Assembly: GCA_947650285.1 (NCBI GenBank) | Contig: CANTFL010001191.1 | Span: forward strand, 183,519-247,518 | Length of the DNA stretch: 64,000 nt | Reading direction: 5' to 3' | DNA from: Hyaloperonospora brassicae | Lineage: Eukaryota; Oomycota; Peronosporomycetes; Peronosporales; Peronosporaceae | Shown: one piece after another, positions 1,097 through 23,397 of the stretch | How positions within the stretch are numbered: position 1 is the stretch's first letter | Layout: every line of letters begins with the position of its first letter | Made by a program: the position numbers and the translations under genes | The notes under the pieces: model-generated | The model's input: the letters and a program-made list of their open reading frames with translations, nothing else | Told to the model about the DNA's origin: nothing | Databases searched by the model: none

Positions 1097-2325
1097 GTGG
1101 TCGATCAAGTCAACACCATCTTTTCATTGACCCCCGCGTCCGATGAAGATCTATCGAGCCAACTGCACCCATTGACCCACACGCCCAAAGTGACGAGCGT
1201 GGGGGACTGCCAGTACCTCACACGTGTCGCAGACTTTTTGTGCGACACTAGTGGTGACCACCACACAGTGACAATTTCATGCTGGTCATTGAGCCGTTTG
1301 ATAGCGGGTCAGGCGCTCACGATCCCGTACTACAGCTCTCGTGCTTGGATGCGTCGCTGGCGATTCGTCCGGTGTTTGAACGCTTTTCCAGTGTCATCAT
1401 CACTTCCGGAACACTGTCTCCAATCGATTTATACCCGCGACTGCTGAACTTCAACCCGGTGATCCGAGAATCGTTGCCCATGTCCGTCTATCGCGCAAGT
1501 ATTTGTCCCCTCGTGATCACGCGCGGTAGTGACCAGATGCCCGTGAGTACCAAGTTTGACCTGCGCGACGACATGTCCGTGGTCCGCAACTACGGAACGC
1601 TTTTACTGGAAATGGCAGCTTGCACGCCCGATGGTATGGTCTGCTTTTTCCCGTCGTATCTCTACATGGAGAAGATTATCGGCCAGTGGGACTCGCTGGG
1701 AGTGCTTAAGCGCGTTCTCTCGAGCAAGCTGCTTTTCATTGAGACGAAAGATGTTGTGGAGACGACCCTGGCGCTGGACAACTACAAAAAAGCGTGCGAC
1801 TGTGGCCGAGGGGCGATCTTCTTTTCGGTTGCTCGTGGGAAGGTGGCAGAAGGAATTGATTTCGACCGTCACTATGGACGTGCCGTGCTGCTCTTCGGTA
1901 TCCCTTTTCAGTACACGCTGTCGAACACGTTGCGGGCGCGGCTCGAATACCTTCGGTACACGCATCAGATCCGCGAAGGTGACTTTCTGACATTCGATGC
2001 GCTGCGCCAAGCCGCCCAGTGCGCCGGTCGAGTTCTTCGGAGCAAGACCGACTACGGTCTCGTCATTTTCGCTGACTCGAGATACAACCGAGCGGACAAG
2101 CGCACGAAGCTGCCGCCGTGGATCACCCAGTTTCTCTTGACGTCGCACTTGAACTTGTCAGTGGACATGGCAGTGTTCATGGCGAAGAAATATCTGTCGT
2201 TGATGGCTCAGCCAGTGGACGAATCGACCAACGTCAACTCCATCTTGCTAGATGCCGATGGGGTGTCCAAGTGGCTCGGCAAACATCCAAAAGAAGACGA
2301 ACCCGTGCAGTGGCACAGTAAGTAA
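1097..2325 (+). pseudogene. Truncated, frameshifted XPD/ERCC2 (TFIIH helicase), C-terminal half
   Basis: XPD is the 5'-3' DNA helicase of TFIIH, acting in nucleotide-excision repair and transcription initiation in the nucleus. The main frame (1279-2325, 348 codons) matches helicase domain 2 along its whole length. It shows VIITSGTLSP, the FFPSYLYME block, SVARGKVAEGIDF (motif V) and QAAQCAGRVLRSKTDYG (motif VI). Homology continues upstream in a different frame (about 1140-1277, ending in a YLTRVADFL block that precedes the IEPFD motif in the family), so a one-base shift lies near 1276. The Walker A/B motifs, iron-sulphur cysteines and Arch domain are absent from the window. The family is about 760 residues; about 390 are represented. 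The end is convergent with RPL11, 160 bp away. It could be a real pseudogene or truncated duplicate, or an assembly or indel artefact at the scaffold edge. Family assignment is certain; pseudogene status is likely. Confidence 0.8.
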
Positions 2326-7037: not shown

Positions 7038-8333
7038 TCAAATGCCGAGAAGAAGTCGTTCCGGGTTCTCAATCTTGTCGGCAATGGCCTTCAAGCACGT
7101 GACTCCCTCACGGCCATCGACGAGGCGGTGGTCGTACGTAAGCGCAAGGTACATCATGGGACGGGCAACGACCTCGCCGTCCACGACCACGGGGCGCATC
7201 TTCGTGCCGTGCATACCGAGAATCCCCGACTGCGGCAGATTGATGATAGGCGTGCCCATAAGCGAGCCAAACACACCGCCGTTCGAGATCGTAAAGTTGC
7301 CACCAGTCATCTCTTCGAGCGACAGCTTGCCATCGCGAGCGCGTATTGCAAGCTCAGCCAAGCTCTTTTCAACATCGGCAAAACTCATCGACTCCGTGTT
7401 CTTCAGCACGGGTGTCACCAGACCCTTTGGTGTCGACACCGCGACACTCATGTCGACAAAGTCACGGTACACAATCTCCTGGTGCTTCTCGTCAATCATA
7501 GCATTCACGCCCGGCACTTCCAGCAAAGCCGACGCACTGGCTTTCACAAACGCCGACATGAAGCCCAATTTCACGCCATGTTTGGCCTCGAACGCGTCCT
7601 TGTACACTTTCCGCAACGCCAACAGCTTCGACATGTCAACTTCCTGAAACGTCGTGAGACTCGCGGCCGTGTTCTGCGACTCTTTCAGTCGCTCGGCCGT
7701 GCGCAAGCGCATGCGACTCATTTTCTCGCGACGGCAGCGGCGCTCAGAAGTTGCAAGCAACAGCGCGTCACCAGAACGCTGCGCCTCTGTAGCCGCGACC
7801 GGCGCAGCAGCGCGCTCGTCGGTGGTTGGCACAGCGTTTCCAACGCGCTCGGGCGGCGACTCGGCCGCGACCGGTGCTGCTGGAGCAGCTGCAGGCGACT
7901 CGTTTGTCGTCGCTGCGCCCCGTTGCAAGCGGAAGAGCGGGACGCCAATCGCCACTGTCTCGTCCTTGTCGACCAACGTGGCCGTAATTGTGCCCGAGTG
8001 CGGCGCCCGCACGTCGACACTCACTTTGTCCGTCTCAATGACAACCACAACGTCGTCGGCGCCGACGCTGTCGCCCGTCGTTTTCAGCCAATCCACGACG
8101 GTTCCCTCTGAAATCGAATCGCCCATAGACGGGACATTCACGTCCACGACCGCGTCGGCGCTGGCTGTGAACCACGCGCGACGGGGCGCGACGCCGACGC
8201 GACGCAGCGCCGGCGTGCGGAACGACAAGCGGCTGAAGGTGCGATCGCTGCGGCGGCTGCTGCTCGGCGGGCGGCTGAGCGCGTGGAGCGAGCGGCGCGT
8301 GAGACGAGCGGCGACGCGACTCGAGCGCTGCAT
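7038..8333 (-). CDS. DLST: Mitochondrial dihydrolipoamide succinyltransferase (E2 of 2-oxoglutarate dehydrogenase)
   Basis: This enzyme transfers succinyl from lipoyl-lysine to CoA in the 2-oxoglutarate dehydrogenase complex of the TCA cycle, in the mitochondrial matrix. The 431-residue protein starts at the ATG at 8333. This start gives an Arg/Ser-rich, acid-poor presequence (residues 1 to about 58), whereas a more upstream in-frame ATG would add a Pro/Cys-rich stretch atypical of a presequence. The lipoyl domain is at about 62-138 with the lipoylated Lys103 in IETDKVSVDV. An Ala/Pro linker spans about 140-195. The catalytic domain runs from about 202 to the end, with the active-site HRLVDGREG (His402, Asp406). 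No E1/E3-binding subdomain is visible in the linker, as is normal for eukaryotic succinyltransferases. It appears to be a single exon. The upstream side contains a GGGT run (about 8417-8431). The EGTVVDWLK and C-terminal features favour the succinyl over the acetyl enzyme. Confidence 0.96.
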   Translation of the reverse strand: MQRSSRVAARLTRRSLHALSRPPSSSRRSDRTFSRLSFRTPALRRVGVAPRRAWFTASADAVVDVNVPSMGDSISEGTVVDWLKTTGDSVGADDVVVVIETDKVSVDVRAPHSGTITATLVDKDETVAIGVPLFRLQRGAATTNESPAAAPAAPVAAESPPERVGNAVPTTDERAAAPVAATEAQRSGDALLLATSERRCRREKMSRMRLRTAERLKESQNTAASLTTFQEVDMSKLLALRKVYKDAFEAKHGVKLGFMSAFVKASASALLEVPGVNAMIDEKHQEIVYRDFVDMSVAVSTPKGLVTPVLKNTESMSFADVEKSLAELAIRARDGKLSLEEMTGGNFTISNGGVFGSLMGTPIINLPQSGILGMHGTKMRPVVVDGEVVARPMMYLALTYDHRLVDGREGVTCLKAIADKIENPERLLLGI

Positions 8334-11005
8334 GATGTGTCGAGGGGGACAAGTTGGTTGACGTGGGATGGTGTGGCACACGCGAATTACGACTCACCCA
8401 GCGGTCTGAAGCGAGTGGGTGGGTGGGTGGGTTTTGGTACTGTACCACTGGATACGAGATGTGGTGTAGAGTAATCGGTCGATTGGATGTTGTGGAATCG
8501 AGATCCAAAGGGCTTGTGGCTTCCTTATCGTGAGCTAATATGGGCTTTACAGATCGCGATTGAAGCAACTTCACCTATCGATACGAATAATGTGTTATAT
8601 CGGCACGTGTTGAGTTGGCACGTGTCCCGAATTGGCACGTTTTCGAAGATGATAGGATGTGCGTTGTGAAGCGTGATGACTGGTTTATTGTTTCTGTTGA
8701 TATGCGAAGAAGCTGCTCGTCGATGTTGCAGGTATGTAAAAGATTGACGCACGCGAAATGGGTTATGGACGCGCTCAGCCTTGGACGATAACATTTATTA
8801 GAAAAAGGAACAAACCGTCCGCAAGAGGCGGGTCGCAAATTCAGATGTTGTCGAGTTAAGTAAACGGTTTTCAAACATTTGGTCGGTCAAACAGCTTTGC
8901 TTTTTATAAAAAAAATGTACATAGGTCGTATACGTGTATACGTTGAGATCTATATGCACACTCAAGCCGAAAAACTGCTGCATTTAGGCGACGGTGATCA
9001 AGTCGGTACGACTTCGGTTTTGACCGAGAAGGCTATGACTGATAAGCATACTGGGCACAAACAGCCCGATGTAAGAACGGTAAGAATTCATCGTTGTGGC
9101 CTTGAATGTATTGCGTCTCATTCGATCAAGTCAATATCTCTGTTTGGCAATCTCATCATTTCCATTCTTACTAGCGTGCACGCCACATCTACCTTCCGAG
9201 CAGCAGCACCTCCACAGTCCGAAGCCTCGTGTCGTAAAGCGAGATGACACGCCTATTATGTACCAACGCAGAAGGTTAGCGTTATGTATCAAACAACCTG
9301 GAGAGAAGGCGACGCCCCATGTGTGTTTCTGCTCCACATCAGTTTGGACTAACATTCTATCAGACGAGCTCGTCGGATCAAAAACGTGCGCGCAGTGTTA
9401 CAAACTACAACGCAACAAATGCCACTGTTCTTCGCCGGTCTATCCAATACATGTTGAGGCCATTTGTAGCTTAAACGAACATGGTAAATTAGCTATCGAA
9501 CACGTAGCTTTTACCCTTTGCAACTTTTTAAGCTTGCAGAAATTCCAGCTGACCGGTAGGATCCATCTTTTACAGCGTTTCATGATGTATGTTGTGGCAT
9601 GATCATGTATATGTTTTCCTAGCCATCGTCATCGCATGCATACTTTATCCACCATCGAAGTCACACCGCGGCAAATAGTCAATAAACGGACATCGAGCTT
9701 GATGGCGACCGGTGTTCTCGAGTCAACGATGGCGTTTTGTGTGATTACGGGGCTTTGCCACTAAGTACAGTCGACTACTATGAGGATTCGATACACTTCT
9801 TTATTCTGCTAAGATCGCGTAGATCAAACGGTCGGCTTTGTAAACGGCATTTTAGGGTTGATGGTTTCTAGGCCCAACACGTTTGGTAAGACAAATTGTT
9901 ACTACAAAGGCGCTTGGGCTACAATCCTTTACGTTGATTGATCATCAGGGCGCAAGCGACGTGAAGATCTTTATCGATACAGCGAATCCCTCAAGGTGGA
10001 AAAGCACATGAGTAGGCTCCAAAGCTGCAGCTCCAATGTGATTCTTCTCTTCAACCTAGTAGTGTTCATTCGACTGCGAAGTCTTTGTCGCGCTGGCAAC
10101 CATAAAAGACACCAAAAAACCAGCGTAACCGAAACATGAGATCATGTAAGCGTTGTTATTCTTAAAGATTGCGTTTATGTCTAGCGAGTCTAGTACGAAT
10201 CAGTTCATGCAATACAGCAACTCGACTCTTGCGGTTCTATTGGTGTTGTTCTGTCGTTTTTTTTCATTTTCTTACTACATGATGGTGCTGAATCGGTCAA
10301 AAGATGCGTCGTGGCAAACTTGTAGTCGCTTACCCATGTTGTATCGCAGCTGCTTCCTGACATTCCCATTCAACACCAGTTTACACGAGGTGTAGTAATT
10401 GCTGTGTCGGATACGTAGCTTACAGATCTCCGTATCGGCAAACAGTCGCATATCTTTCGTGAGCTTCGACCGTATCGGTGTTCCTCTGTCCGTACAGAAT
10501 GAGCAAGCGCGCCCCATGCAAGCGTAGATTAAACTGATAGATGATCGAAGCGTGGAACGACCACGACGATCATTATAATATCAAATAAAATGCACAAGAT
10601 CTCTCCTGTCTTTTATGACTGGCAATGCGCTAACGACAATACGCATGCGGTCTGCAGAAGCAGAAAGTGGACGGCATCATCTCTCCAAGCACGTGCGATG
10701 CATGTGTTTTAGACGTTTAGACCTCACTAGATTGCAAACCATTTTCGACAGTATTGTTGAAACGATCGCTGATTAGTTCCTACAAAGGAAGAAAATATAA
10801 TTTCTCTCTCGGTGTTGGCCTCGAAATTGACATGTGTAGTCACAACACCTTTGTAAGTTTGCTACGTGTGTGCAGTCTTATGGTGCCAACATCGCCATGG
10901 TGAAGATTAGGCTTTGCATGTTGGTGTTAGTCTAGTCTCTCGAAGCGTAGTGGATGAAAGCAGGAAGAAATGAAGTCCAGCTCTCGCAATGGTTGACACC
11001 CTCGT
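8334..11005. other. Intergenic region upstream of DLST, no recognisable gene
   Basis: The first few hundred bases are presumably the DLST promoter and 5' UTR. The rest, up to the left LTR, holds only short frames without recognisable motifs. The last five bases, CTCGT (11,001-11,005), are the left copy of the retrotransposon target-site duplication. Confidence 0.55.
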
Positions 11006-11392
11006 TGTAACGGGGCACACCCTTGCGTAACTTAACGCAAGGGATTTGGGTGCCCCGACGGACGTACACGTGGCGAGCGAGGAAGCGTAGGTAGGGTAAA
11101 AGTAGAACTGTTATATTAATAAATTAAGTCTTTAACTACTGTCTCTTCGTTTGACTTAATTCAATTATACTAATATAACTGCATGTATGGTGACGTCTCG
11201 TCACCACTCATTGCGCGCGTCTTGCGGCGATTGGTGGGTTGATATCATCACGATATCAACCAATGAACAGACCCTTTGGTCGACCCTTCAATATCACCAC
11301 TTTGGTGATATTGTTTAAAGAATATCCATCTTATATTCTTTATTGTCACTTTCCTTAAGTGACAATATCATGTAACGGGCTGCCCCGTTACA
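11006..11392 (-). repeat. 3' LTR of the gypsy element
   Basis: 387 bp, TGTAAC...GTTACA. Its ends are self-complementary (TGTAACGGGG / GCCCCGTTACA) and it contains many internal hairpins, for example GGTGACG/CGTCACC, GGTTGATATC/GATATCAACC and GTCACTT/AAGTGAC. It is identical to the 18.6-kb copy except for T versus C in TTTGGTGATATTG near its 3' part. Relative to the plus-strand ORF at 11,525 this LTR lies immediately upstream, so it could supply an antisense promoter (inference). Confidence 0.97.
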
Positions 11393-11408
11393 TCACCCCC
11401 CCCCTTAA
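11393..11408 (-). other. Polypurine tract
   Basis: Read on the minus strand, AAGGGGGGGGGTGA directly precedes the LTR end. This is the expected position and composition of the plus-strand DNA primer of an LTR retrotransposon and confirms that genomic RNA is transcribed on the minus strand of this window. Confidence 0.85.
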
Positions 11409-11524
11409 CTGATAGTCACCGTATGACTATCGAAATATGGAGGCCACCCGTTGGCCACCATTGGGACAGGGAGTACTTGTTTGGTCCGTTCCACTCACTT
11501 TCCGCTTGACCTCGCATAGCTAAC

Positions 11525-13129
11525 ATGTCTATGCGAGGTGACTCAAGACCCACACAGCCTGGTGCTGTGCAAGCCTCTGCGGCAGACGCTTCGTCGTCTG
11601 CCGCCCCTTCTTCGCCTGCAGCAACAGGTGCTGCAGGTGCACGCGGTGTCACGCCGCGTGCGTATGATGACCCCGATGTGGAGGTCATCTACTCTGGCGA
11701 GTCAGACGTGTCTGACTCGGGCAATGCTCCAGAGGCGTCTCGCTCACCGGCGACGCCTCAGTATTCGCCAAGGCCACTGCCGAACGAACGGACTCGTGAT
11801 TCGCATCACAGTCTGTTCGGCAGTGATGACGATGATCAGGGTGGTGAGTTCTATTCTTCACCACCGCCGGCTCGTGCGTCTTCGCACGAGCGTGTTGACG
11901 ATGGCGCGAGCCGTCGTCAATCTGGGAGCCGTGGTACCGACAAGGGTACCACTGTGAAGCGTGATGAGTTGAAGCCGTGGCGTTTGCCCGAACAACTCAT
12001 CAATAGCCTGTCTCACGAGACAGGCCAACACCATCGAATACCCTTATTCGATGCAACCGAGCTTCACGGCTTGAGTCCCAGCGCGAAGAACTTTCGCGCT
12101 GAAGAAGATTTTTATCTCGATGTCTTCCTTAGACATCGATGGTACAATAGCAATCAAAAGCGTGACAAAACATCGCTTTTGGCTGCGTGGAACGCGTTCG
12201 TCCAAATCGTAAAGAATTTTGGACGAGAAGGGTGGCTCAAGAAACTTGAGGCAACACGCCTCAGGTTCGAACGGCGAACGCCAACCGGTGCTAGGTACCG
12301 GTTGCATTGTTTATCGAGTGAGGCAGGCATTCCTTGCCTCACATGGGGAGACCCTTGTGCGAGTTGTGTTGACAACTCGCAGCGTGCACATAGGGATGTG
12401 TACTCCCTAAGTTCGCCCTGGGGAAGGGCACATCTCTCGGAGGAGATGCGTGACGCGATTGCAAACTTGCAATCCGTCTACAAGCGCCTAGGGCGCGTGT
12501 TTACCGATGGGCCACAGGACTCATCGGATGGGTCTCGTCATACTGGTGGACGAGACCTTCAACATCCATTAACAGCTGAGAGCGGGGCTCCCAGCTGTTC
12601 CAAGAGGGTGGATACCCCCGCCACTGGACGAGGTAGCTCGTCCTTGATCCTGAATCGTCACGGTGATTCAAGATACGCTCCACTAGAAAGCGTTGATCAC
12701 CGTGAGCATCCACCAAAGGATGTGGTGGAGGAGGAAAGACCTCCTCCAGAACCCCAGGCCCACCATCTCGACCCTTACGAGATGGATCGCGCAATCGATG
12801 AATTGCGCGATGACTTGAAGCACGAGCGCGACCGACGCTACGCTTTGACCGACACCGTGCGGAAGAACCGCAAGGATCACGAGGCTGATCGGGCGAGGGA
12901 TCGCGCCGATTATGCCACGGCGCAGCTTCAGGTCGAGCGGGATGTCCGCTCCCTTTTCGGCGAGCTGGCGACAGCTCGCGGAGAGATAACTCGGTTGAAT
13001 ACCGAGGTATCATATCTGCGCGACCAGACGGATCGTCTGGAGCGCGAACGCAAGAACTTGATGGATGTTCTTGAACGTGGGGGCTATCTTCATCGGAAGA
13101 AGAAGGCCCGTACTGACAGTACGACCTAA
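11525..13129 (+). CDS. Antisense accessory ORF of the gypsy element, 534 residues, unknown function
   Basis: I do not recognise the family. The frame is fully open and runs opposite to gag-pol; its last 629 bp overlap the chromodomain end of pol. Residues 1-145 are Ala/Ser/Pro-rich with two acidic patches; VEVIYSGESDVSDS (52-65) has the shape of a SUMO-interacting motif. About 147-330 looks globular (PWRLPEQLI, PLFDATELHGLSPSAKNF, LLAAWNAFVQIVKNF) and has Cys262, Cys271, Cys278 and Cys281 next to His261, a possible metal site. About 330-415 is low-complexity. About 417-518 is charged and predicted coiled coil by heptad-like spacing. The C-terminus has a basic RKKKAR (524-529), a possible nuclear signal. 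The ATG at 11,525 lies in the loop of a 10-bp palindrome 133 bp past the LTR. A decayed fragment at 49.6-49.8 kb resembles residues about 280-320. It may be an accessory nucleic-acid or chromatin factor, but function is open. Confidence 0.8.
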   Translation: MSMRGDSRPTQPGAVQASAADASSSAAPSSPAATGAAGARGVTPRAYDDPDVEVIYSGESDVSDSGNAPEASRSPATPQYSPRPLPNERTRDSHHSLFGSDDDDQGGEFYSSPPPARASSHERVDDGASRRQSGSRGTDKGTTVKRDELKPWRLPEQLINSLSHETGQHHRIPLFDATELHGLSPSAKNFRAEEDFYLDVFLRHRWYNSNQKRDKTSLLAAWNAFVQIVKNFGREGWLKKLEATRLRFERRTPTGARYRLHCLSSEAGIPCLTWGDPCASCVDNSQRAHRDVYSLSSPWGRAHLSEEMRDAIANLQSVYKRLGRVFTDGPQDSSDGSRHTGGRDLQHPLTAESGAPSCSKRVDTPATGRGSSSLILNRHGDSRYAPLESVDHREHPPKDVVEEERPPPEPQAHHLDPYEMDRAIDELRDDLKHERDRRYALTDTVRKNRKDHEADRARDRADYATAQLQVERDVRSLFGELATARGEITRLNTEVSYLRDQTDRLERERKNLMDVLERGGYLHRKKKARTDSTT

Positions 13130-16100
13130 GCCTCCCCACGTAAAACGTAGGATGCGTGCGCAATCTACGTGGCAATTCGAGTGTGTATGCATTGCCCTTG
13201 CGATGCAACACTCGAAATGGCCCAATGTATTTCGGCAGTAGTTTACTACTGCCGACACTAGTGACTGCATGTCCAGGTAGGTTTACCGTTGACAGTAGTA
13301 CTAGGTCGTTAACCTTAAATGAAAGAACATTTGCTCTTCCATTCTTGTCTGCGTTCCGTTTCTGACGGTCCACCGCATTTGCGATTGAGTTCTGAACGAA
13401 AAGGACTACCGCTTCTCGAGTCAGCAGGAAGTTCTCTGCTGACTCTTTGTTTTGTCTGGCAGTGCGCTTCGTGCGCACTGCTAAGAGATTGCTCTCTTCT
13501 TCAGCGAGGTTGTCTTCTTCCTCGCTGACATAATCGTTGGCGATGCTGAATATACCAACATCGTCATCATCATCCGAGTCAATAATATCGTCTTAGCTAT
13601 TATTGAGATGATCTTCTTCATCGATGTCGACTTGATCGACATCGGCATCATACGTGACGACGTTTGCGTCGACACGTGATGAGCAAGAGCCAAAACGGTT
13701 TTTGCTCGAGCGAGTCCCTCCCCCCGTATCCAAGAGTCACACTCTATAAGGGTGAGCACACGTGGATGGCGAAGGCCATTCACGTAAAACGGTGTGTGCT
13801 GTGTTGAAGCATGCACCGAATTATTGATGGCGAATTCCACCCATGGGTAGGAATTCGCTCCAACTCGGAAACGAGTGGACATATCCTCGAAGGATCTCTT
13901 CGAGGACACGGTTCGCACGTTCCGTCTGACCATCTGTTTCGGGATGGTCAGAAGTGGACATCTTCAATCGTGTTCCCAAGAGTACGGAACACGGTTTGCC
14001 AAAATGCCGCCGTGAACCGAGGGTCACGGTCGGATACGAGTTCATGGGGTAACCCGTGGAGTCTAAAGACCGTGTCTAGAAAGACACGAGCACAACCTTG
14101 AGCCTTGATCGACTCATGGACAGCAGCAAGATGGACCATCTTGCTGAATCGGTCAACAAACACAAGAATACCATTATTCTTGTGAGCGTCTTCGGGAAAC
14201 CCGAAGACGAAGTCCATTGAAACGGACTGCCAGCACTCTGTCGGAACAGGCAGAGGCTGCAAAGGCGCACGGGATGAAGGACTAGGCTTCACCCGTTGAC
14301 AAACCTCGCAAGCACGTATGTACTTGCGGACAAACTGATACTGGCGGGGCCAGTAAAAGTCACGACTTACCGTGAGGTAAGTCTTTTCTCTACCACGATG
14401 GCCGCCTGTTGGGGCATCGTGACACTCATACATGATGCGTAAACGCAAATCATGATGAGCGGGTACGACGACACGAGGCGTGTCGTCGGCAAAAGCTGTA
14501 TAGTACAGCAATCCGTTGCGTGTACTATACCGATCCGATGAGGATCGGTACAAAGCCGGTAAATCCCTCATGGATTTACTGGATGGATTCACCAGATGAT
14601 CCATCAATCGCAGAAGATCCTTATCTTCCGCGTATGCCTTTCGTACTTCATCAAGTAAATTTGACGACGGGACACTGACTGACAGTGTCGCAACAGTGGG
14701 CTTATCCTCACTGTTGGATTGTGCGTCCGGCTCGAAATCGGGCCGGCGCGAAAGCGCATCAGCGACGACATTGAGTCGTCCCGGTTTATACTCCACGGAG
14801 AAGTTATACTCCGCGAAGAAAGACAGCCACCTCGCCGTTCTTTGCGAGAGGCGTGTGCTGTTTACGGCCGTGCGTAATGACGCATGGTCCGTGTAGACAA
14901 CAAACGGTCTATCTCCGAAGAGATAGACGCGAAACTTAGCCAGTGCGTACTTCATGGCAAGGAGTTCCTTGTCATGCACTGGGTAATTACGCTCAGCTGC
15001 TTGCAGCTGACGCGACTGATGACAGACGACGCACTCTGCACCATCTGCATCGAACTGCATTAACGCACAGCCGATTGCAAAATCGCTGGCGTCACAGACC
15101 ACATGAAATGGTCTGTCCTGATCTGCAATCGCCAAGATCGGCGATTGCATCAAGCTTTGCTTGATACCCTCAAAGGAACGCTGGCACTCAGCGTTTCATG
15201 ACCACTTGACATTTTTCTTGAGCAAGCAAGAAAGATGAACAGTCATCTCGGCGTATTTGCGCGAGTACTTGTGCAAGTACGCCGCTAGACCAAGGAACTT
15301 CCTTAGTCCCTTGAGATCGACTGGCACTGGATAGTCGGTGATCGCCTTGATCTTTTCGGGATCAGGGCGTACGCCGAGATAACCCACGATGCACCCAAGA
15401 AGTGGTATTTCGCTAGCCGCGAATATACACTTCTTGAGGTTTGCGTACAACTTATGCTTGCGCATAAGTTGAAGTACTTGACGAACGTGAGTTCGGTGGA
15501 CTTCAAAGTCCGTCCTTTGTCCATAGCCCGACTATGGACGAACACATCGTCGAAGTAACTCGGTGCGGAATCACGTACCGGTCTCAACATATTTGTAACA
15601 CATCTGTTGAAAGAAGCAGGGGCATTGCTCAGCCCCTGTGGCATCACTAGCCACTCCCACAACGTATTGCTGGGGGTGCTCACTGCTGTGTACTTGATGT
15701 CCCTTTCACGCATGAGGATCTGATAGAATCCGTCCATCAGATCCATGGACGAAAAGATGGTATTCTTTGACATACCATCTATGATGACGTCCTTCCTCGG
15801 TATCGGCGTCTGAGCCGGTACCGTTGCAGCGTTCAATTTGTTGAACGCGTGCACTATCCGCCACCCTCCTGTGGCCTTTCGCACACAGAAGGTCGGAGAG
15901 CTGTGAGGGGATGTTGATTCCCTCACATGGCCCGCTGCTAAGCGATCGGCAAAGAACTTGTCGATCGTTAGTTCTTGTTCACGAGGCAGTGGCCACTGCT
16001 TCATGACACAGTACTTCGAGCCCGGTTTGAGCTCGATCTCGTGTCGAGTGCCTTTGTCCTTAGGCAACTCGCAAGGTACGGATTCAGGGAACACATCCCT

Positions 16101-17420
16101 GAATTCGATCAAATCCTTATACAAAGGATTTGCCTGAAGTGACTCCCAGGATTGGGACGCGTATCGCTCAATCCGAGTCTTCTCATCGAGGACACTTTCG
16201 TCCATCGATGAGCTGCTGAGAACCCGTTCGTTCTCAGCAAATACTGTTGCCGACCGAATGTCGGTCACATACTCGTCCTCTGTGACGAGTACGCAGATCT
16301 GCTTGACTTTGCCACTACGCAGATCACGCAAGAACCGTTTCGGTTCTAGCGTTGGCAACTGAGTTATCTCCGAAGTCAACTTCGGAGGCACAATCAGATC
16401 AAGCGTATAAGCGCCTACGCTTGATCCGTCATTAACCAAGACGTTCAACGTCTCGGTTTCTTCCTGGGATCTTGCTTCCACAGGTTGCTGAGGGCCTGAT
16501 CCCTCAGCAAGCAACTCTTGAGGAACTCCTTCCTCAAGTACGTGGGGACTTATTCCCTCGACGTCTTCCGACTGTGGCTGTGCAACCACAGTCAGGAACC
16601 GATCCTCTACGGTCGACTCTCCAGTCGACCTAGGATTTTCATGTTGCCCCTTGGGGGCAACAGATTTCTTTCTTCTAAGATGCTGCCCGCTAGGCATGCA
16701 TCCATGTCCCGGTCCACTCGACTTATTCGAGTGGTGGACCTTCGGCGCAGCCTGTACTTCTGTACAGCCGCCGGGAGCTTGCTCCACAGTGTAGTGATCA
16801 ACTACACTGTGACCTTGTGCAGTCGTGCTAACGACCGTACCGCAAGTGAGGCCATCGCACTCACTCGCAGAACATCCACACGCTTGTGGACGCTCCAAGA
16901 TGTTCATCAGATGGCCATCTGATGAACAAGCAGCAGGCATCTTCACGGATCGATGCTGCCAGCTCACCCTTGGCTCGTATTTTCTGAGCCAAGGTAATCC
17001 CAGGATGACATCAAATTTGTCATCCAGATCTAGTTCGATGAAGTCATCATCGTACTGCTCGCCCTCTAACGTGTAGTGGATTCCTACTACACGTTTCTCA
17101 ACGGTTATCGATGCGCCTGTTGCAAGGCGCACCGTCATCCTTGTGAGGGGAATGTCGCGCTCAACGAACTTGAGCCTACGACCCTCTAGTGACTGGCGAC
17201 GAACAAAGTTGTTCGACGCCCCACAGTCTACTAGGGCACGAAGCGACAAGTCATTTGTCGCTTCCAACTTCAAGGTGATGAGCGAAACATCATCACCAGG
17301 TGCAGAGACACACAATGATTGTGTATCTGGAGCAACTTTCGTCAAGAGGTTTGCAAATTCTCTTGAGGTTGCTGGATCAGTAGGGCGCTCCGCCCCTACT
17401 GACCCCGACCATTTTTTGAT
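12501..17420 (-). pseudogene. pol: pol (PR-RT-RNaseH-INT-chromodomain), disrupted
   Basis: Protease: VDCGASNNF (Asp codon about 17,228), a DCG variant of the retropepsin DSG/DTG. Reverse transcriptase: VMPQGLSNAPASF and catalytic YFDD (15,557-15,546). RNase H: VVCDASDFAIG and VYTDHASLRTA. Integrase: HHCC zinc motif (HDAPTGGH ... CEVCQ), then [13 protein letters not shown] and the Glu in [10 protein letters not shown]. An Asp/Glu-rich linker follows (about 13,680-13,500), then a THPTFYVGRL GPF-like module and a chromodomain (YLVQWRGYPPSWNSWEP) ending at 12,501. The frame shifts near 15,525, 13,985, 13,848 and 13,722 (a G-run) and meets TGA at 15,196-15,198 and TAA at 13,593-13,595. Expression presumably uses a -1 shift from gag. 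The breaks could be genuine inactivation or, at homopolymers, sequencing indels. Confidence 0.93.
17378..17417 (-). promoter_or_regulatory. Candidate -1 ribosomal frameshift site between gag and pol
   Basis: On the minus strand the gag frame reads TCA AAA AAT, giving an A-AAA-AAT heptamer (17,417-17,411). It is followed by a 7-9 nt spacer and a GC-rich hairpin with arms at 17,401-17,391 and 17,387-17,378; the gag TAG stop (17,398-17,396) lies inside the hairpin. pol is open in exactly the -1 frame from this point. This fits the X-XXY-YYZ plus structure model, although hairpins are common everywhere in this element, so the structure alone is weak evidence. Confidence 0.65.
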
Positions 17421-18550
17421 GGCCCGTCTCGCTGTTGCGGCTTCGCAACAGCGCTGGACCCACGCCCATTGCCCTTTCTGGCGAATGGTCGTCCATTTCG
17501 CTCAGTACTGTTTGGTACTGGGCGCGGAGCACTACACTCGTATGCGTAGTGCCCTAACTTCTGACAGCGATTGCACCTCTGCAATCGCTTGTTGCTTGTA
17601 GAGCGAGGTCTCTCGCTCTCAACATAACAGAGGTCCATTGGTTCTGGACCTCCGATCTCTTGTCGTCTCGGTGGACGGTAAGAGTTTGAGCTAGCATGAG
17701 CCTGTCTCATGCTAAAGTCTTCCTGTTCCGCGGCTGATATCGCTTCTTCAAGCGTATTCAGCTCAAGGCGGAACAGGTGGCTCCTGACGGGCCCTTCTGC
17801 GAGCCCTTGCATGAACACCGTAATCAACGTGTGTTCATGAACTGGGTTTGCAGTTATACTACTCGCAAGGAGTCGTATATGTTGTGCGTAAGCGTGCACA
17901 TCACGCTTACCCTGCTTGAGTTTCAGGAGCTCTGAACGAGCCCTGAACTCAGCACGTGGCGGCTCAAACGTTTGTCTGAGCCGGGACTTGAAGTCATCTA
18001 GCGACCTAAACACGTTTGGGTCGCTACTCTCGAGTCCCAGGGACCAAGTTTTGGCACGCCCTGCCAAGTGGGTTTGAGCAAATGTGAGTTTCATTTGCTC
18101 ATCTTCGACGCGACGAGCCCTTAGGGCTCTGTCGAGTTCGACAAACCATAGTAACAGGGAGTCCTCCGGGACTCCACTGTACTTGGAGATGTCGACTTTC
18201 ATCACTTCGGGACGACGCGCATGCGCCGTCCCGCCCACAGCAGCATGGAATTGCTGCTGTCTCAACAGCTCCGTCTGTTGAGCACCGAGTTCTCTCAACT
18301 GCTCGGCCTGTTGAGAGCCTTGCTGGTGAAGCAAGGCTACTTTCTCCCTCTCGAGAGCAAGTTCATTGTGAATGAACTTGGCGATAGCAGCATGTTGTTG
18401 GTCTCTGTCTAGAGACTCCAACATGGTGCTGACGACGAGTTCGCCTACGGTAGAACTCATTCGTTCTACCGCACCCCATTCGATGTCACTCAAATGGGTA
18501 AACCCTTCACGCGTGGCGTGAAAGGTGTCTTCTTCATCCAACATGTTCAT
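17396..18550 (-). CDS. gag: Gag polyprotein of the gypsy element, 384 residues
   Basis: Gag forms the cytoplasmic virus-like particle that packages the element RNA. The frame is intact. About residues 60-110 are Gln/Glu-rich and predicted coiled coil. About 125-275 match a retrotransposon-gag capsid domain (VDISKYSGVPEDSLLLWF, LAGRAKTW, SRLRQTFEPP, LLKLKQGKRDVHAYAQHIR, FMQGLAEGPVR). A single CCHC zinc knuckle, CNRCQKLGHYAYEC, lies at about 325-338, followed by an Arg/Gly/Lys-rich tail. The stop overlaps the candidate -1 frameshift hairpin leading into pol. Gag begins only 45 bp from the LTR. The DNA coding for it is dense in short palindromes, like the rest of the element. Confidence 0.95.
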   Translation of the reverse strand: MNMLDEEDTFHATREGFTHLSDIEWGAVERMSSTVGELVVSTMLESLDRDQQHAAIAKFIHNELALEREKVALLHQQGSQQAEQLRELGAQQTELLRQQQFHAAVGGTAHARRPEVMKVDISKYSGVPEDSLLLWFVELDRALRARRVEDEQMKLTFAQTHLAGRAKTWSLGLESSDPNVFRSLDDFKSRLRQTFEPPRAEFRARSELLKLKQGKRDVHAYAQHIRLLASSITANPVHEHTLITVFMQGLAEGPVRSHLFRLELNTLEEAISAAEQEDFSMRQAHASSNSYRPPRRQEIGGPEPMDLCYVESERPRSTSNKRLQRCNRCQKLGHYAYECSAPRPVPNSTERNGRPFARKGNGRGSSAVAKPQQRDGPSKNGRGQ

Positions 18551-18580
18551 GTTGGATGATGTGGTCCTTGGAAGGACTAC

Positions 18581-18592
18581 AAAGTGCTACCA
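18581..18592 (-). other. Primer-binding-site-like sequence
   Basis: On the minus strand, two bases after the LTR end, the sequence is TGGTAGCACTTT. The leading TGG is complementary to the tRNA CCA tail, and TGGTA resembles initiator-Met tRNA sites of many gypsy elements. The particular tRNA cannot be named without the tRNA set of the organism. Confidence 0.6.
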
Positions 18593-18594
18593 GG

Positions 18595-18981
18595 TGTAAC
18601 GGGGCACACCCTTGCGTAACTTAACGCAAGGGATTTGGGTGCCCCGACGGACGTACACGTGGCGAGCGAGGAAGCGTAGGTAGGGTAAAAGTAGAACTGT
18701 TATATTAATAAATTAAGTCTTTAACTACTGTCTCTTCGTTTGACTTAATTCAATTATACTAATATAACTGCATGTATGGTGACGTCTCGTCACCACTCAT
18801 TGCGCGCGTCTTGCGGCGATTGGTGGGTTGATATCATCACGATATCAACCAATGAACAGACCCTTTGGTCGACCCTTCAATATCACCACTTTGGCGATAT
18901 TGTTTAAAGAATATCCATCTTATATTCTTTATTGTCACTTTCCTTAAGTGACAATATCATGTAACGGGCTGCCCCGTTACA
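18595..18981 (-). repeat. 5' LTR of the gypsy element
   Basis: 387 bp, one visible difference from the 11.0-kb LTR. It is followed by the right target-site copy CTCGT at 18,982. It is the upstream LTR for gag-pol transcription, which runs leftward. Confidence 0.97.
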
Positions 18982-21900
18982 CTCGTCGTTTTTTTCGATA
19001 TTTCTTCTGGCGAGTATGTCTATCGGCAGCATACTTTGGTTAATGCTACGGTGTGATTGTCCATTGCGTGCTAAGTTCCGTTTGAGGGACCTCATCATTT
19101 GCTCCTCTAGATTTATTACGGAACAAGTCATTCGCAGACCTGTACTCCTCTTTTAATGGCCTTCGTGCGACATCACAGATACAAACGACGGACGGACTTC
19201 ACCTTCTCGCAAAACAGCTCCACGTGCGTCTTGTACACAGTTTGAGTTGGCTGCATGCTCCACCAGTTCCATCGCAAAGCTCATATCGCCAGACGTGTTC
19301 GAAATGTTGCATGGAGGCCTCGCTCGAGCGATGCATAAACTGCGGCCATCTTGATTGCATCTTTTATTCACATTTGCATGACTCACTTTGATCATACAAA
19401 TGGTGGCATTATTTGACAATCACTTCTTGATACATTGTATCGTACGCAATCTCTTGTTACATTCATGTTGACAGACGTCTTCGACGTATGTGACATAAAC
19501 GAAAAGGATCGTAAACCGCTCTGAAGCCGCTTTGTTTTATCAAGCCGTTCCATTTGCAGTGTGACTGATTGCGAGCACACTCGAGTAAGATAGCTCGCAG
19601 AATAGAGTGTCGTCCTCGTTGCAGGCGGTGTTTGTACATTCCGGCGCCCAAAAAAGTCAGTCCCGCTGCTGCCGTACATGAATAAATGCTTTGTGGCACG
19701 GACCGTACTGTGCTGTAGCCTCAAAGGGTTGGCTGCAGATTATGGGCGTCTTTGATCTAGAACTGTGTGTGAACGCTCGCGGTCTGATCAGCGTTTTGTA
19801 TGCGAATACGTCCCCACGAAGCCTAAATATAGCAAAGGCGTGTTGCTCGTCCTCCGCTGATCATATCAGTGCATCTACTCATCTCTTCGGTACATGTCAC
19901 GCTTATTCTTTGCAGAATACAACGAGTTTGAATCATCATCTTGTTGAAATAATGTGAGTGTAGTTCTGCGGAGAAGATACTACCGATTGTGGTCATCTAG
20001 CCTTCAGAATCTCACAAAAACGAAACGGCCTATGAGGCTGGTACACAATTGCCCTGTTGGGTATCCGTGCCAAACACTTAGGTCAGGTGTCAAAGGCAGT
20101 CGCGCAGACTGCACTACGTTGCGGTATTCTCGGACGTGGGGGTAAGCAGCGCCGAGGCCAGCCCTCTCATGCAACTTACAACGGCGGAGAGATAAGATTT
20201 GACGGCAACAAATCACTTGACGACAGCTGCGCCAAGCAAGCAGTAACGTGTCTCATTCGCACCCGATCGCTCGTTTGCCCAACTCCGAATTGTTTACGTC
20301 TGCATGGCGTGCGTTGGACCCGCTGGTGCTCATGACATCGTTACAACCCTGTATCCGTGAGACGCCGGGTCGACGATTGGTCTTTGTCTGCTCTCCTGCA
20401 TGTGCGATCGATCATCCGCACGTAACATGTCGAGTTTCTGGGCGCGATTGTACGACTCGTACTCCACTCGAAACTTCAAGTGATTCGTTACAAGTGTCCT
20501 GCACCCTCTTGAAATGTTCAGCTCAACCTTTGGGCTACAAACGCGTTACGATCTTATGCAGCTCACGATTCTACTTGTACATCCTGTTCGACTCTACAGC
20601 TTTGATGCACGTCGACAGCTGTTCTAAGGCGACCACAACTGATCGAGGTCAAAGGGATGCAGCTTTGCGACCCTGCGAGCTAAGCTGGCGACGTCTGACT
20701 AAATTGTTGCCAATCGTAGTCCACGCGTTCGACACAAGAGTCTGGTTGCACGTCGTCTGTAGTTCCGGATCCTACCGAAATCCAGCTTCCTGCGTTAAAT
20801 GAGAAATGATGCGGTCGCAAGTTGTTGTTGCCCATGGTTGTATGACTAGAAGCATGTCGACCGAGCCTGGAGCTTCTCGAGCATCCCCCGTGGCTGTAAC
20901 AGATGACTGGCGTTGTAACAGTAGATGGAAATTTCGAGACGCGGCATCAATCGACCACGAACCTTGCGCCGATTGCCTCGAAACGCTGCCGATCATCAGT
21001 AGTAATGACAGGTGTTTCGCGGCAGGCAACGTGCCTGGTAGCACTGCCCATGTGAAGCGCCGCGCGGTCGTCGAGAGCACTACTTCGGTCGGGACGCGTC
21101 AAAACGCGTGCGATGTATTGTTTGGTCATAACTTGCAGAGACTACCGCAAGCGTCGGCAGCGAGTAATCACGTTGCGAATGATGCGCCCGCGTGTCGCTC
21201 GCATGTGTCCAGTGCATACGAATCAAATTTAATTTTTTCTTTGCCAGGCGGTCCGGCACGCGCCCAATCAGCCAAAGGCCTTGAAGGCTTCTGCCCCGCC
21301 TGGATCTTCGTCCGCGAGTCGTCGACGCCCTTTCACCCCCTCGTCCGTTTCGGATTGAACAGAGACGCGGGCATCTTGATGGACATCTGCGATTGCCATC
21401 CGCCTCTTGTGCGACCTTGTAACGGCCCGAAAGCCAGTGAGTGCACTGACAGACGAAAGGCTTGCGTGTCAATGGCGAGCCCAGACCATGTAAAAAATAT
21501 GTGCACACAAGTCGATTTATGTATGTGCACTGGCAACGGACGCGCTTGACGCTGTCGCTGCTACAGGAACGTACTGACGCTATTGCACGGGTTTGAGACG
21601 ATGGCCACTTCGTAGCGCTCTTTGTCCTTCGGACCGGACCCGTGCGTCGTTTTTGTTGGGCCCTCTCGCACCAGAGCAAGTCCAGACCGGGGGCAGCCCA
21701 ACCTCCTCCTCCTCCTCCTCCCCCCACCTTAGTAGACGTTACGCACGAAACCGCGCCAAAAGCGTCAGTCTTGTCGCGGCGTCGCCAAGAGACGTGCAGA
21801 TCTGACCAGGTGGTCGGCTCGCCTTTCAGAGCTGGCGACAGCAGAGAGAGAGAGCACGCGTGCGCGTGCGAGTAAGCGAGCGAGAGAAACTGACACGATC

Positions 21901-22461
21901 CCCCGACCCGTTGATCGGCCACGAAACGAGAAAAGCGCTCGTGGTGGTAGTAGTGGCTGTCACTTTGCAATCGCCAGCAGTCTGCGCACGTCGCCTGCGG
22001 TTTTTGACCCACGGACACGCAAAGCAGTGCACGTTCGCTCTGATCCTCTCCTTACCGCGTTCGAAAGAGAGCCAACAGCGCTTTTCGGGGCGAGCGGCGA
22101 CTACACGACGCGCGCTGTCCAAAGCCGCTCAGCGCGTCCTTTTTCTCGTGCATCGACCCCCGTCAGGCGAGGCGACACCTGCTCTCCTGTCTCTCTACGA
22201 ACCGCCGCGTCGCACGTTGCGCGCTGGTTCGCTCGTCGACTTTCTGCTGCCCGTCGTCGTCGTCGTTGTCGTTGTCGTTCTGGTCGTTCTGGTTGTAGTT
22301 GCTCAGGGCGTTGTGCTGGCGGTGGATATCGTGGATCGAGCGGACATAGTGCGAACGCCTTTCGTGTCACAAGGCCATTGACCTTTTGCCACTGTTGCTG
22401 CCCGTCTCGAGAGCTCATTTCACAATCCATCACGTCGCCCGCCATTATTGTCTCGTCTCGA
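18982..22461. other. Intergenic region and 5' flank of the homeobox gene
   Basis: I find no recognisable gene. Several long frames occur between 20.2 and 22.4 kb (up to 312 codons), but they are Arg/Ser/Cys-rich, overlap each other on both strands and lack motifs; they reflect high GC content. CT and GA microsatellites (about 21,704-21,725 and 21,843-21,852) and GTC/GTT repeats (about 22,253-22,290) suggest an extended promoter and 5' UTR of the gene that starts at 22,462. Confidence 0.5.
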
Positions 22462-23397
22462 ATGGACTCGACACACAGTTCTGCCCGTCGCGTTGCCATG
22501 CGACTCTTGACCGCATCGGACCCGTCGAACGGCTCGCAGCCACGAGGCCGTCTCTCGGCTGTCGACGATTTCGTGCTGGCGTCGCCGGTATTGACTGGCA
22601 AAGCCGTGCCCGTGACTTCGCCAAACCCGGCCAAGAACCCGCTCCCAGGGCTGCAGTTTGCCATGTCGGTGCAACGCGCTCCGAGTCGGGAGCTGCGGCT
22701 GCCGTCGTTCGCCAGCCCGTCGTTCGACGAGCTCGAGAACGCAGCGACACCTGCTGGGAGCAGCGCCGAGGAAGACGAGCTCAGTGAGAAGAGCGCGACG
22801 CAGCAGCCGCGACGCAAGAAGGGCACGCGGCGCGGAACGCTGCACCCCGAGGCCAAGAACGTGCTGAAAGCCTGGATGTTCTCGCCCGAGCACTTTGCCC
22901 ACCCGTACCCGAGTGAAGAAGAGAAGGAGGAGTTGGCAACCGAAGCGGGCATTGAGGTCAAGCAGCTGTCGAACTGGTTTACCAATGCCCGCAAGCGGCT
23001 GTGGCAGCCCGTGCTGCGTCAATCTGGAGTCGAAGTCAAGAACTTCTTGTCCACTGGACGGGGCGGCCCACGCGGCAATAAGCTTGAGGTGCCGGCCAAT
23101 CTTCACCAGCTGGTGGCGCAGTCGCCTGTGCCGAGTCCACCGAGCTCGCCTCGCAAGCGCTCGTGGTCGGCAATGGGCACATGCACCTCGCCTTGCACTG
23201 CTCTGCCGAGTGGCGCGGACGAAAGGAAGCACGACAGTAAGCGCAGGAAGTGCGCTGGACCGCTGACGAGCAACGCACACTCGAAACGGAGCAGCAACTT
23301 GCCGGTCGAAAGGATGTTCTCTCAGTTCCAAGAGCTAGAGCTGCTCGCGGCCACGTCCCTACTCGGGCTACAACACTTGACTCAGTCAGTCCATTAA
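22462..23397 (+). CDS. TALE/KN-type homeobox protein
   Basis: A nuclear sequence-specific DNA-binding protein, 311 residues. The homeodomain is at about 118-181. It begins with a basic RRKKGTRRG arm and has the three-residue TALE extension between helices 1 and 2 (HFAHPYPSEEEKEEL). Helix 3 reads NWFTNARKR, with the Trp, Phe, Asn and Arg that contact DNA. Position 50 (WFxNxR x) is Thr; many TALE proteins have Ile there. Flanks are Ser/Pro-rich, with an acidic stretch just before the homeodomain. I chose the ATG at 22,462, although the frame is open upstream to 22,027, because the upstream part is Arg/Ser/Cys-rich and overlaps repeat-laden UTR-like DNA. It is convergent with the NSRP1-like gene (188 bp apart). 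The developmental targets are unknown. Confidence 0.88.
   Translation: MDSTHSSARRVAMRLLTASDPSNGSQPRGRLSAVDDFVLASPVLTGKAVPVTSPNPAKNPLPGLQFAMSVQRAPSRELRLPSFASPSFDELENAATPAGSSAEEDELSEKSATQQPRRKKGTRRGTLHPEAKNVLKAWMFSPEHFAHPYPSEEEKEELATEAGIEVKQLSNWFTNARKRLWQPVLRQSGVEVKNFLSTGRGGPRGNKLEVPANLHQLVAQSPVPSPPSSPRKRSWSAMGTCTSPCTALPSGADERKHDSKRRKCAGPLTSNAHSKRSSNLPVERMFSQFQELELLAATSLLGLQHLTQSVH

What the first reader, a model, noticed from the sequence alone, without database searches (positions are those of the whole stretch)
11006..18981. Retrotransposon built almost entirely of short inverted repeats, coding regions included
Throughout LTRs, gag, pol and the antisense ORF I find arms of about 8-13 bp separated by 0-13 nt, spaced every 20-40 bp. 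Checked examples: 11,510-11,519/11,529-11,538; 11,579-11,588/11,595-11,604; 11,699-11,707/11,710-11,718; 12,531-12,539/12,549-12,557; 16,111-16,118/16,124-16,131; 16,642-16,650/16,654-16,662; 16,785-16,795/16,801-16,811; 16,902-16,914/16,915-16,927 (26-bp perfect palindrome); 18,237-18,245/18,252-18,260; 18,261-18,268/18,275-18,282. Flanking host genes do not look like this. Such density within conserved protein-coding sequence implies selection or a mutational process (template-switch or hairpin-templated copying during reverse transcription) that keeps making local palindromes. It could yield self-folding genomic RNA, resist or feed small-RNA silencing, or let both strands code.
Basis: seen in the sequence. 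Interest (0 to 1): 0.93.

Follow-up and report, generated by a model that had tools for sequence, protein, structure and literature searches.

The report
Retrotransposon armoured with short hairpins
A jumping gene in what is likely a water-mould genome is packed from end to end, genes included, with short mirror-image stretches that are predicted to fold into hairpins; variants shared among its copies seldom fall in the stems, likely because staying folded would hide its RNA from the host's silencing small RNAs.

Summary
Element 11006-18981 has 105 inverted repeats (arm >=8, loop <=15), 13.2/kb, against 0.15/kb in dinucleotide shuffles and 0.48/kb in the rest of the window. Synonymous-codon shuffles keep 3-4% of those in its ORFs. 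It is a Ty3/gypsy LTR retrotransposon (387-bp LTRs, CTCGT target duplications, gag-pol on the minus strand, antisense ORF) with many near-identical copies. A second gypsy family (B) is also rich (6.8/kb); 30 loci of non-gypsy reverse transcriptases are not (0.27/kb). Predicted folding energy exceeds shuffles by 44-47% on both strands; 23.4% is the highest coronavirus value quoted in the paper consulted. Among 30 copies, synonymous variants shared between copies avoid stems (odds ratio 0.33; 0.10-0.18 well inside stems), private variants much less (0.56-0.84). Changes making G-U are no more tolerated than A-C, so the constraint is Watson-Crick and strand-symmetric. Individual hairpins are not conserved between families A and B. 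Best reading: pervasive strand-symmetric self-structure kept by selection, likely a shield against antisense and small-RNA pairing (function inferred). Main rival: arm-to-arm copying during reverse transcription, for which no positive signature was found, with small numbers. Eight paper searches listed no description of it.

The parts
11001..11005 (.). target-site duplication CTCGT, left
   Evidence: sequence; identical to 18982-18986
11006..11392 (-). 3' LTR (387 bp, TG...CA) in gag-pol orientation; 6 hairpins of score >=7
   Evidence: one difference to the other LTR in 387
11393..11412 (-). polypurine tract next to the 3' LTR
   Evidence: sequence read; function from general knowledge of LTR elements
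11525..13129 (+). 534-aa ORF antisense to gag-pol; 24 inverted repeats; 11 relatives at 31-85% identity
   Evidence: no Pfam family at E<=0.001
13481..13933 (-). 150-aa ORF downstream of the integrase core, no Pfam family; likely integrase C-terminal part
   Evidence: assignment inferred
13948..15153 (-). RNase H, integrase zinc-binding and integrase core (PF17917, PF17921, PF00665)
15303..17345 (-). aspartyl protease and reverse transcriptase (PF08284, PF00078); in this copy separate from the next piece, in many other copies part of one open frame
17396..18550 (-). gag (PF03732, PF19259) with a zinc-knuckle match below its cut-off
16902..16927 (.). 26-bp perfect palindrome in pol
16785..16811 (.). 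hairpin, 11-bp arms, 5-nt loop, in pol
11509..11539 (.). hairpin with 11-bp arms spanning the start of the antisense ORF
18584..18592 (-). likely primer-binding site two bases inside the 5' LTR
   Evidence: sequence read; assignment from general knowledge of LTR elements, tRNA not identified
18595..18981 (-). 5' LTR in gag-pol orientation
18982..18986 (.). target-site duplication CTCGT, right

Best explanation
This is a Ty3/gypsy LTR retrotransposon whose two strands are each predicted to fold into about 150 short Watson-Crick hairpins, variants shared among its copies avoid the stems, and this is likely selection for RNA and cDNA that stay folded on themselves and so would resist pairing with antisense and small RNAs. 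Shown: the density, its independence of composition and codon use, the energies computed for both strands, the depletion of shared synonymous variants in stems, equal intolerance of G-U and A-C, and the lack of positional conservation between families A and B. Inferred: that the constraint is selection and not correction by copying; that folded strands matter because they anneal poorly to antisense transcripts or silencing small RNAs. Stems stay mostly at 8-11 bp although many could be lengthened by synonymous change, which would fit a need to be closed but too short for Dicer (inferred).
For: 105 inverted repeats, 13.16/kb vs 0.15/kb in shuffles; synonymous-codon shuffles keep 3-4% in family A ORFs. 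Energy surplus over shuffles 46.8% sense, 45.4% antisense in 150-nt windows (103 and 98 of 105 windows z<-2), 44% in 350-nt windows; flanks -1.2 to 1.0%. Shared synonymous variants, stems pooled from all 30 copies, stratified by place and mutation type: odds ratio 0.33 (38 seen, 69.5 expected, p=3e-8); two pairs in from the stem ends 0.18 (12 vs 40.4), or 0.11 for hairpins of score >=8 (5 vs 28.5); private variants 0.56-0.84. Unclustered singletons of the recent clade: ratio 0.94 (11 stem and 14 non-stem synonymous events). Variants fade from stem end inward: 16/380, 5/339, 5/272, 2/461. G-U-making 8/316, A-C-making 11/383, p=0.82, both below 80/847 for non-stem transitions. First pair beyond the stem end could be closed synonymously in 29 of 72 pol hairpins, as at random places. 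Stems fill 36% of positions in codons conserved in >=90% of the aligned proteins (160 codons). Families A and B both carry a long antisense ORF beside the 3' LTR, a possible source of antisense RNA. Phytophthora 25-nt small RNAs derive mainly from transposons (PMC3804510, abstract); most P. infestans small RNAs map to transposons, predominantly LTR elements (PMC3522703, abstract).
Against: No RNA, small-RNA or probing data were available; the function is not tested. Inner-stem constraint (ratio 0.12-0.27) is about as strong as that against amino-acid change outside stems (shared non-synonymous over synonymous 0.0243/0.154 = 0.16), a lot for a diffuse benefit spread over 150 hairpins, and it would suit automatic correction. 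Private variants are also somewhat depleted at score >=7 (0.68, p=0.005), so a mutational part is not excluded. In RNA-only selection G-U should be tolerated better than A-C; it is not, and transversions are not depleted more. Only 15% of 25-nt windows self-fold at -8 kcal/mol or below, against 5% in flanks, a modest effect on guides. In B versus C (L069) stems pooled from both differ about as much as the rest (69/268 vs 383/1337). In the LTR the stem depletion is not significant (21/116 vs 73/271 sites, p=0.07). Copies share ancestry, so site counts are not fully independent.
Confidence: 0.42

Rival explanations
1. Hairpin-templated copying: while the element is reverse transcribed, the new strand snaps back on itself and one arm is copied from the other, so imperfect palindromes become perfect and mismatches are corrected every cycle, without benefit to the element.
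For: Nearly pure Watson-Crick stems, equal on both strands, loops most often 4-5 nt, presence in LTR, coding and non-coding parts alike; hairpins differ in place between families; old variants depleted and new ones much less would follow from correction too; internal stem mismatches persist mostly where no synonymous repair exists (7 of 29 repairable in gag, pol and antisense ORF against 0.40-0.46 at random, p=0.04). Single hairpins whose changes all fall in one arm exist (4 against 0 in two cases). Template switching is known to make and mend stems (PMC8794818, abstract and passages).
Against: Hairpins absent in a relative show no overall excess of change in one arm (p 0.24-0.44 in six comparisons). 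11 of 11 distinct compensated pairs are transitions, though 29 of 109 shared non-stem synonymous variants are transversions (chance 0.03). In the non-coding LTR 1 compensated state against 19 broken ones. A-T exceeds T-A by 5' base (390 vs 320 at score >=6, p=0.01; not significant at score >=8), opposite to the intrastrand prediction in PMC8794818.
Confidence: 0.3
2. Structured genomic RNA for packaging: the hairpins are repeated binding sites for Gag along the sense RNA, as in models of dispersed packaging signals (model recalled, not looked up).
For: Fairly regular spacing, all along the element including LTRs; variants avoid stems.
Against: Only the sense strand should matter and G-U should be tolerated; antisense energy surplus equals sense and G-U is not tolerated. 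Loop composition shows only a mild A excess in gag-pol loops (0.313 vs 0.247 in spacers).
Confidence: 0.12
3. Double-stranded palindromes act as DNA, for example as cruciforms or sites for a dimeric protein.
For: Strand-symmetric Watson-Crick requirement.
Against: Loops cluster at 4-5 nt, a preference that points to folded single strands; no shared motif was looked for.
Confidence: 0.06
4. By-product of base composition, codon use or low complexity.
For: None found.
Against: Dinucleotide and codon shuffles, the other retroelement loci sampled and three host genes of the same genome lack it.
Confidence: 0.01

Closest known systems
[quoted passage not shown] PMC3950689 abstract)
   Same: Many consecutive stem-loops through coding sequence; energy surplus over shuffled sequence; places poorly conserved between relatives; variants seen once fall evenly on paired and unpaired sites while recurrent ones avoid pairs.
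   Different: Here an LTR retrotransposon with its LTRs; surplus 44-47% against about 15% for SARS-CoV-2 and 23.4% for the highest coronavirus named in that paper; both strands alike; G-U not favoured; discrete stems of mostly 8-11 bp.
Template-switch-made RNA hairpins (PMC8794818, abstract and passages)
   Same: Perfect stems that can appear and be kept perfect.
   Different: That work treats RNA genes and DNA replication; the signatures looked for here (one overwritten arm, transversional compensation, T-A excess) were not seen overall.
Plant Retand gypsy elements with antisense ORFs between pol and 3' LTR (PMC11963269 passages)
   Same: Same place and direction of the extra ORF, here in both families A and B.
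   Different: The ORFs here have no Pfam match over a cut-off, TRP28 included; the terms hairpin and inverted repeat do not occur in that paper's main text.
Oomycete Ty3/gypsy groups Chronos and Archon (PMC5348765 abstract)
   Same: Ty3/gypsy elements of oomycetes.
   Different: Membership not tested; their extra RNase H and chromodomain traits were not examined here.

Membership tests
Ty3/gypsy LTR retrotransposon | paired LTRs with TG..CA ends and target duplication | tested here: met
   387-bp LTRs, 1 difference, CTCGT duplications
Ty3/gypsy LTR retrotransposon | gag, protease, RT, RNase H, integrase in that order | tested here: met
   Pfam matches; rve 30.7 bits lies just under its cut-off 32.6
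Ty3/gypsy LTR retrotransposon | gypsy-type capsid and RT relatives | tested here: met
   PF19259 Ty3_capsid over its cut-off; RT relatives with the same domain set; RT tree holds no non-gypsy outgroup
GORS | native folding energy well above order-shuffled controls along the genome | tested here: met
GORS | places of structure poorly conserved between relatives | tested here: met
   A stems in B: 2 of 73, 0 of 58, 0 of 41 hairpins keep >=80% of pairs at three thresholds
GORS | paired sites constrained in recurrent variation | tested here: met
GORS | structure belongs to the RNA strand (G-U pairs accepted) | tested here: not met
   G-U 8/316 vs A-C 11/383, p=0.82; antisense surplus equal; that this defines GORS is my reading
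GORS | genome of a positive-strand RNA virus | tested here: not met
   LTR retrotransposon; so it works like GORS but is not filed as a member
Template-switch hairpins | one arm overwritten, or transversional compensation | tested here: inconclusive
   no overall sign, but 2-15 hairpins per comparison and 11 compensated pairs only
Self-structure as silencing shield | fewer effective small RNAs on folded stretches | not testable with these tools
   no small-RNA data

The most novel reading that the evidence does not exclude
A retroelement lineage has turned its whole genome, LTRs and conserved enzyme codons included, into a chain of short Watson-Crick hairpins on both strands: a double-strand-proof self-structure that keeps sense and antisense RNA apart and defeats homology-based silencing, a kind of genome armour not described before.
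Probability: 0.33. Interest if true: 0.95.

Novelty: new variant of a known kind. Interest (0 to 1): 0.82.

Why it matters
It shows codon choice in a mobile element bent, through nearly half its length, to a property of the nucleic acid that is not protein, and leaves a measurable constraint. If it is a shield, it is a new way for transposons to meet small-RNA silencing and could help a family with many near-identical copies stay active; if it is arm-to-arm copying, it is a reverse transcriptase that writes palindromes into genomes. Either answer is testable with copy alignments and small-RNA reads.

Tried and rejected
Chance, composition and codon bias: rejected. Sense-RNA-only structure: G-U and A-C compared three ways (hairpin counts 143 vs 148 in A, 89 vs 90 in B; mismatches in stems; shared variants), no preference, so not adopted. 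Mutational cold spots in stems as the whole cause: private variants are much less depleted, so not adopted, though at score >=7 they are depleted too (0.68, p=0.005). Reference bias: hairpins first defined on one copy gave 0.31; with stems pooled from all 30 copies 0.40, stratified 0.33, and without the divergent stretch 4000-4400 0.32. Codon phase: the register in which third positions pair together is under-used in gag-pol (9 of 61, p=0.008 at score 8; 23 of 101, p=0.10 at score 6), as any coding constraint would give. Conserved positions between A and B: not found. B-specific stems carry somewhat more amino-acid differences to C (28.7% of 87 codons vs 19.3% of 363), not pursued. Compensation: 14 events at 11 pairs against about 3 by chance, but 6 of the 11 pairs lie in the divergent stretch of L010 and L014, where local divergence is higher than the average used, so the excess is overstated. 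L081, 861 bases of a distant RT (25% identity), has no inverted repeat. Relatives in viral contigs and genome contigs: none found. Paper searches that listed no description of this: (full-text terms; others showed only the best 10 of 59, 15 of 16, 15 of 274 and 10 of 116 papers; subscription journals mostly missing).
Full report
What was claimed and whether it is there. All 10 quoted examples are perfect. The element 11006-18981 has 105 inverted repeats (arm >=8, loop <=15), 13.16/kb, against 0.15/kb in 10 dinucleotide shuffles and 0.36-0.56/kb in the three other stretches of the window. In 200 synonymous-codon shuffles of each of four ORFs the means are 0.39-0.81 where the real counts are 14-26. 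Greedy non-overlapping hairpins of score >=7 number 150 and cover 45.6% of the element, against 2.8-3.8% of the flanks. Median arm 9, loop 5.

What the element is. LTRs 11006-11392 and 18595-18981 (387 bp, one difference) with CTCGT on both sides. The gag-pol strand is minus: gag 17396-18550, protease and RT 15303-17345, RNase H and integrase 13948-15153. This copy's pol lies in separate ORFs; many of the 65 listed copies have one open frame of 1339 aa or more over the same part. A 534-aa ORF runs the other way at 11525-13129, with no Pfam match at E<=0.001 but 11 relatives in the protein search, 10 at 39-85% identity and one at 31%. Of 408 RT relatives 120 were listed; those that carry an organism name are oomycetes (Peronospora, Pythium, Phytophthora, Globisporangium, Aphanomyces), apart from one labelled Nitrospira MAG. 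The host is therefore likely an oomycete, which no call states directly. In the own genome the listings hold 41 LTR, 65 pol and 81 antisense-ORF matches, all lower bounds.

How special it is. All 38 loci of this family L001-L038 have 9.1-14.0 inverted repeats per kb over their length, flanks included; 30 loci taken by the RT profile (L039-L068), none of which matches A's pol by tblastn and which are thus not close gypsy relatives, have 30 in 111,061 bases, 0.27/kb. A second gypsy element (family B, contig C42; repeats of at least 270 bp at its ends, 99.6% alike; RT about 57% identical to A over 308 aa) has 6.75/kb against 0.22 in shuffles. It too has a long antisense ORF next to the 3' LTR (465 aa between stops, 10 inverted repeats), without significant similarity to A's (best blastp E 0.035 to a relative, 8.6 to A's; profile comparison P 0.05). 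A relative of B (L069, called C; RT 92% to B) has 2.9/kb over 1.7 kb; a more distant gypsy (L072) and two further RT pieces (L070, L081) none. So dense hairpins occur in at least two gypsy lineages; only four families with clear gypsy pol similarity (A, B, C, L072) were sampled.

Folding. Mean energy surplus over shuffles in 150-nt windows: A 46.8% sense and 45.4% antisense, B 16.9% and 18.6%, flanks 1.0% and -0.5%, L072 10.5%, L069 5.8%, two other RT loci 2.4% and 1.6%. L072, without inverted repeats, thus lies above L069. In 350-nt windows A 44.1% and 44.4%, B 15.0%, right flank -1.2%. A paper on coronaviruses gives about 15% for SARS-CoV-2, 7.5-10.7% for hepatitis C virus and 23.4% for the highest recorded coronavirus (PMC7642675, passages); its steps differ a little from mine.

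Are the stems kept? Thirty copies (L009-L038, the window's included) were aligned over 4.9-5.0 kb. Variants found in two or more of seven divergent copies, or in a divergent and a main-clade copy, are called shared; those seen once, private. Shared synonymous variants: stem 28 of 592 weighted chances, non-stem 109 of 708, ratio 0.31. Because stems defined on one copy favour conservation, I repeated it with stems pooled from all 30 copies, stratified by 240-nt bin and by transition or transversion: odds ratio 0.33 (38 seen, 69.5 expected), 0.32 without the divergent stretch 4000-4400; two pairs in from the stem ends 0.18, and 0.11 for score >=8. Private variants: 0.56-0.84, significant at score >=7 (0.68, p=0.005) and not at score >=8 (0.84, p=0.24); 0.94 for unclustered singletons of the recent clade, from 25 synonymous events. 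In two of the seven divergent copies private synonymous variants lean the other way (L012 2.24, p=0.06; L009 1.44, p=0.56). Four-fold sites alone agree in 5 of 7 divergent copies at p<0.05; L010 (p=0.085) and L012 (p=0.62) do not reach it, and the copies share ancestry. In the LTR stems vary less but not significantly (21/116 vs 73/271 sites, p=0.07). Variants fade from the stem end inward (16/380, 5/339, 5/272, 2/461).

What kind of pairing. Shared synonymous changes that would make a sense-strand G-U occur 8 times in 316 chances, A-C 11 in 383 (p=0.82), against 80 in 847 for non-stem transitions. So the need is for Watson-Crick pairs, the same on both strands. Fourteen compensated events at 11 distinct pairs stand against about 3 expected; all are A-T/G-C exchanges. 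Six of the 11 lie in the divergent stretch shared by L010 and L014, where the average rate used understates chance.

Turnover. Between A and B, aligned by protein over 3,777 nt, A's stems are paired in B at 0.34-0.36, against 0.22-0.30 with the partner shifted; 2 of 73, 0 of 58 and 0 of 41 hairpins keep >=80% of pairs at three thresholds. Between B and C (71.8% identical over 1,605 nt) all 7 of C's hairpins of score >=7 keep >=78% of their pairs in B, several with changed loops, while 9 of B's 14 keep 57% or less in C. Pooled stems of the two differ about as much as the rest. Density is thus shared more widely than any one hairpin. L014, the most divergent copy of A, has 55 hairpins of score >=8 where L036 has 77; it has stop codons, so decay may explain part.

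Selection or copying. Arm-to-arm copying would give perfect, strand-symmetric stems and would also remove old mismatches. Its marks were sought and not found overall: no excess of change in one arm, no transversional compensation (0 of 11, chance 0.03), 1 compensated against 19 broken pair states in the LTR, and A-T rather than T-A excess by 5' base (390 vs 320; the prediction is in PMC8794818). Numbers are small, two single hairpins do look overwritten in one arm, and the strength of inner-stem constraint, like that on amino acids (0.16), is a point in favour of copying. Stems are not pushed to be longer: the next pair could be closed synonymously in 29 of 72 pol hairpins, the background rate. 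Stems occupy 36% of positions even in codons conserved in >=90% of 16 aligned proteins, against 30% in the least conserved.

Mechanism I commit to. Selection for strands that are closed on themselves. Both strands would matter if the danger is annealing: sense genomic RNA with antisense transcripts (the antisense ORFs of A and B would need one) or with small RNAs. Phytophthora makes 25-nt small RNAs mainly from transposons (PMC3804510, abstract) and P. infestans small RNAs map mostly to transposons, predominantly LTR elements (PMC3522703, abstract). This step is inferred; the direct effect on 25-nt guides is modest (15% of windows at or below -8 kcal/mol against 5%).

Compared with the known. 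It works like GORS, but two features (RNA-strand specificity, RNA virus) are not met, so it is not filed there. Eight full-text searches listed no description of a retrotransposon like this; several lists were capped and the library lacks most subscription papers.

Noticed in passing
window 11525-13129; family B, L073 1649-3043 minus strand: Both hairpin-rich families carry a long ORF antisense to pol beside the 3' LTR. A's has relatives in unnamed ENA contigs (42-48% over 93-96% in three) and Peronospora matthiolae; B's shows only a weak, colinear similarity to it (P 0.05). The place resembles plant Retand elements.
   Followed up: partly
window 18570-18605 and family B L074 260-295: 36 nt across the LTR end and its inner flank are 97% identical between families A and B, the only near-identical stretch in the comparison.
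   Followed up: no
L010 and L014, about 4060-4300 of the pol alignment: Two separate copies share a divergent stretch with fewer hairpins, as if recombined from an older subfamily.
   Followed up: partly
G000 C845:340224-340971: Two LTR matches lie side by side (89% and 100% identity), a tandem LTR arrangement.
   Followed up: no
window 11044-11187 and 18633-18776: A 144-nt hairpin-free stretch in each LTR, the longest gap in the element; possibly where promoter or polyadenylation signals must stay open.
   Followed up: no
window 30001-64000: GC falls to 0.418 against 0.50 on the left, with one listed ORF of 150 aa or more (283 aa).
   Followed up: no
window 1279-2325, 7038-8381, 22027-23397: Host genes: helicase C-terminal domain, 2-oxoacid dehydrogenase acyltransferase with lipoyl domain, KN homeobox.
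   Followed up: no
family A stems, whole element: By 5' base A-T pairs exceed T-A (390 vs 320, p=0.0096 at score 6; p=0.13 at score 8), unexplained.
   Followed up: partly
L072 (G000 C10:32300-34000): A gypsy without inverted repeats still shows a 10.5% energy surplus over shuffles, more than the hairpin-bearing L069.
   Followed up: no
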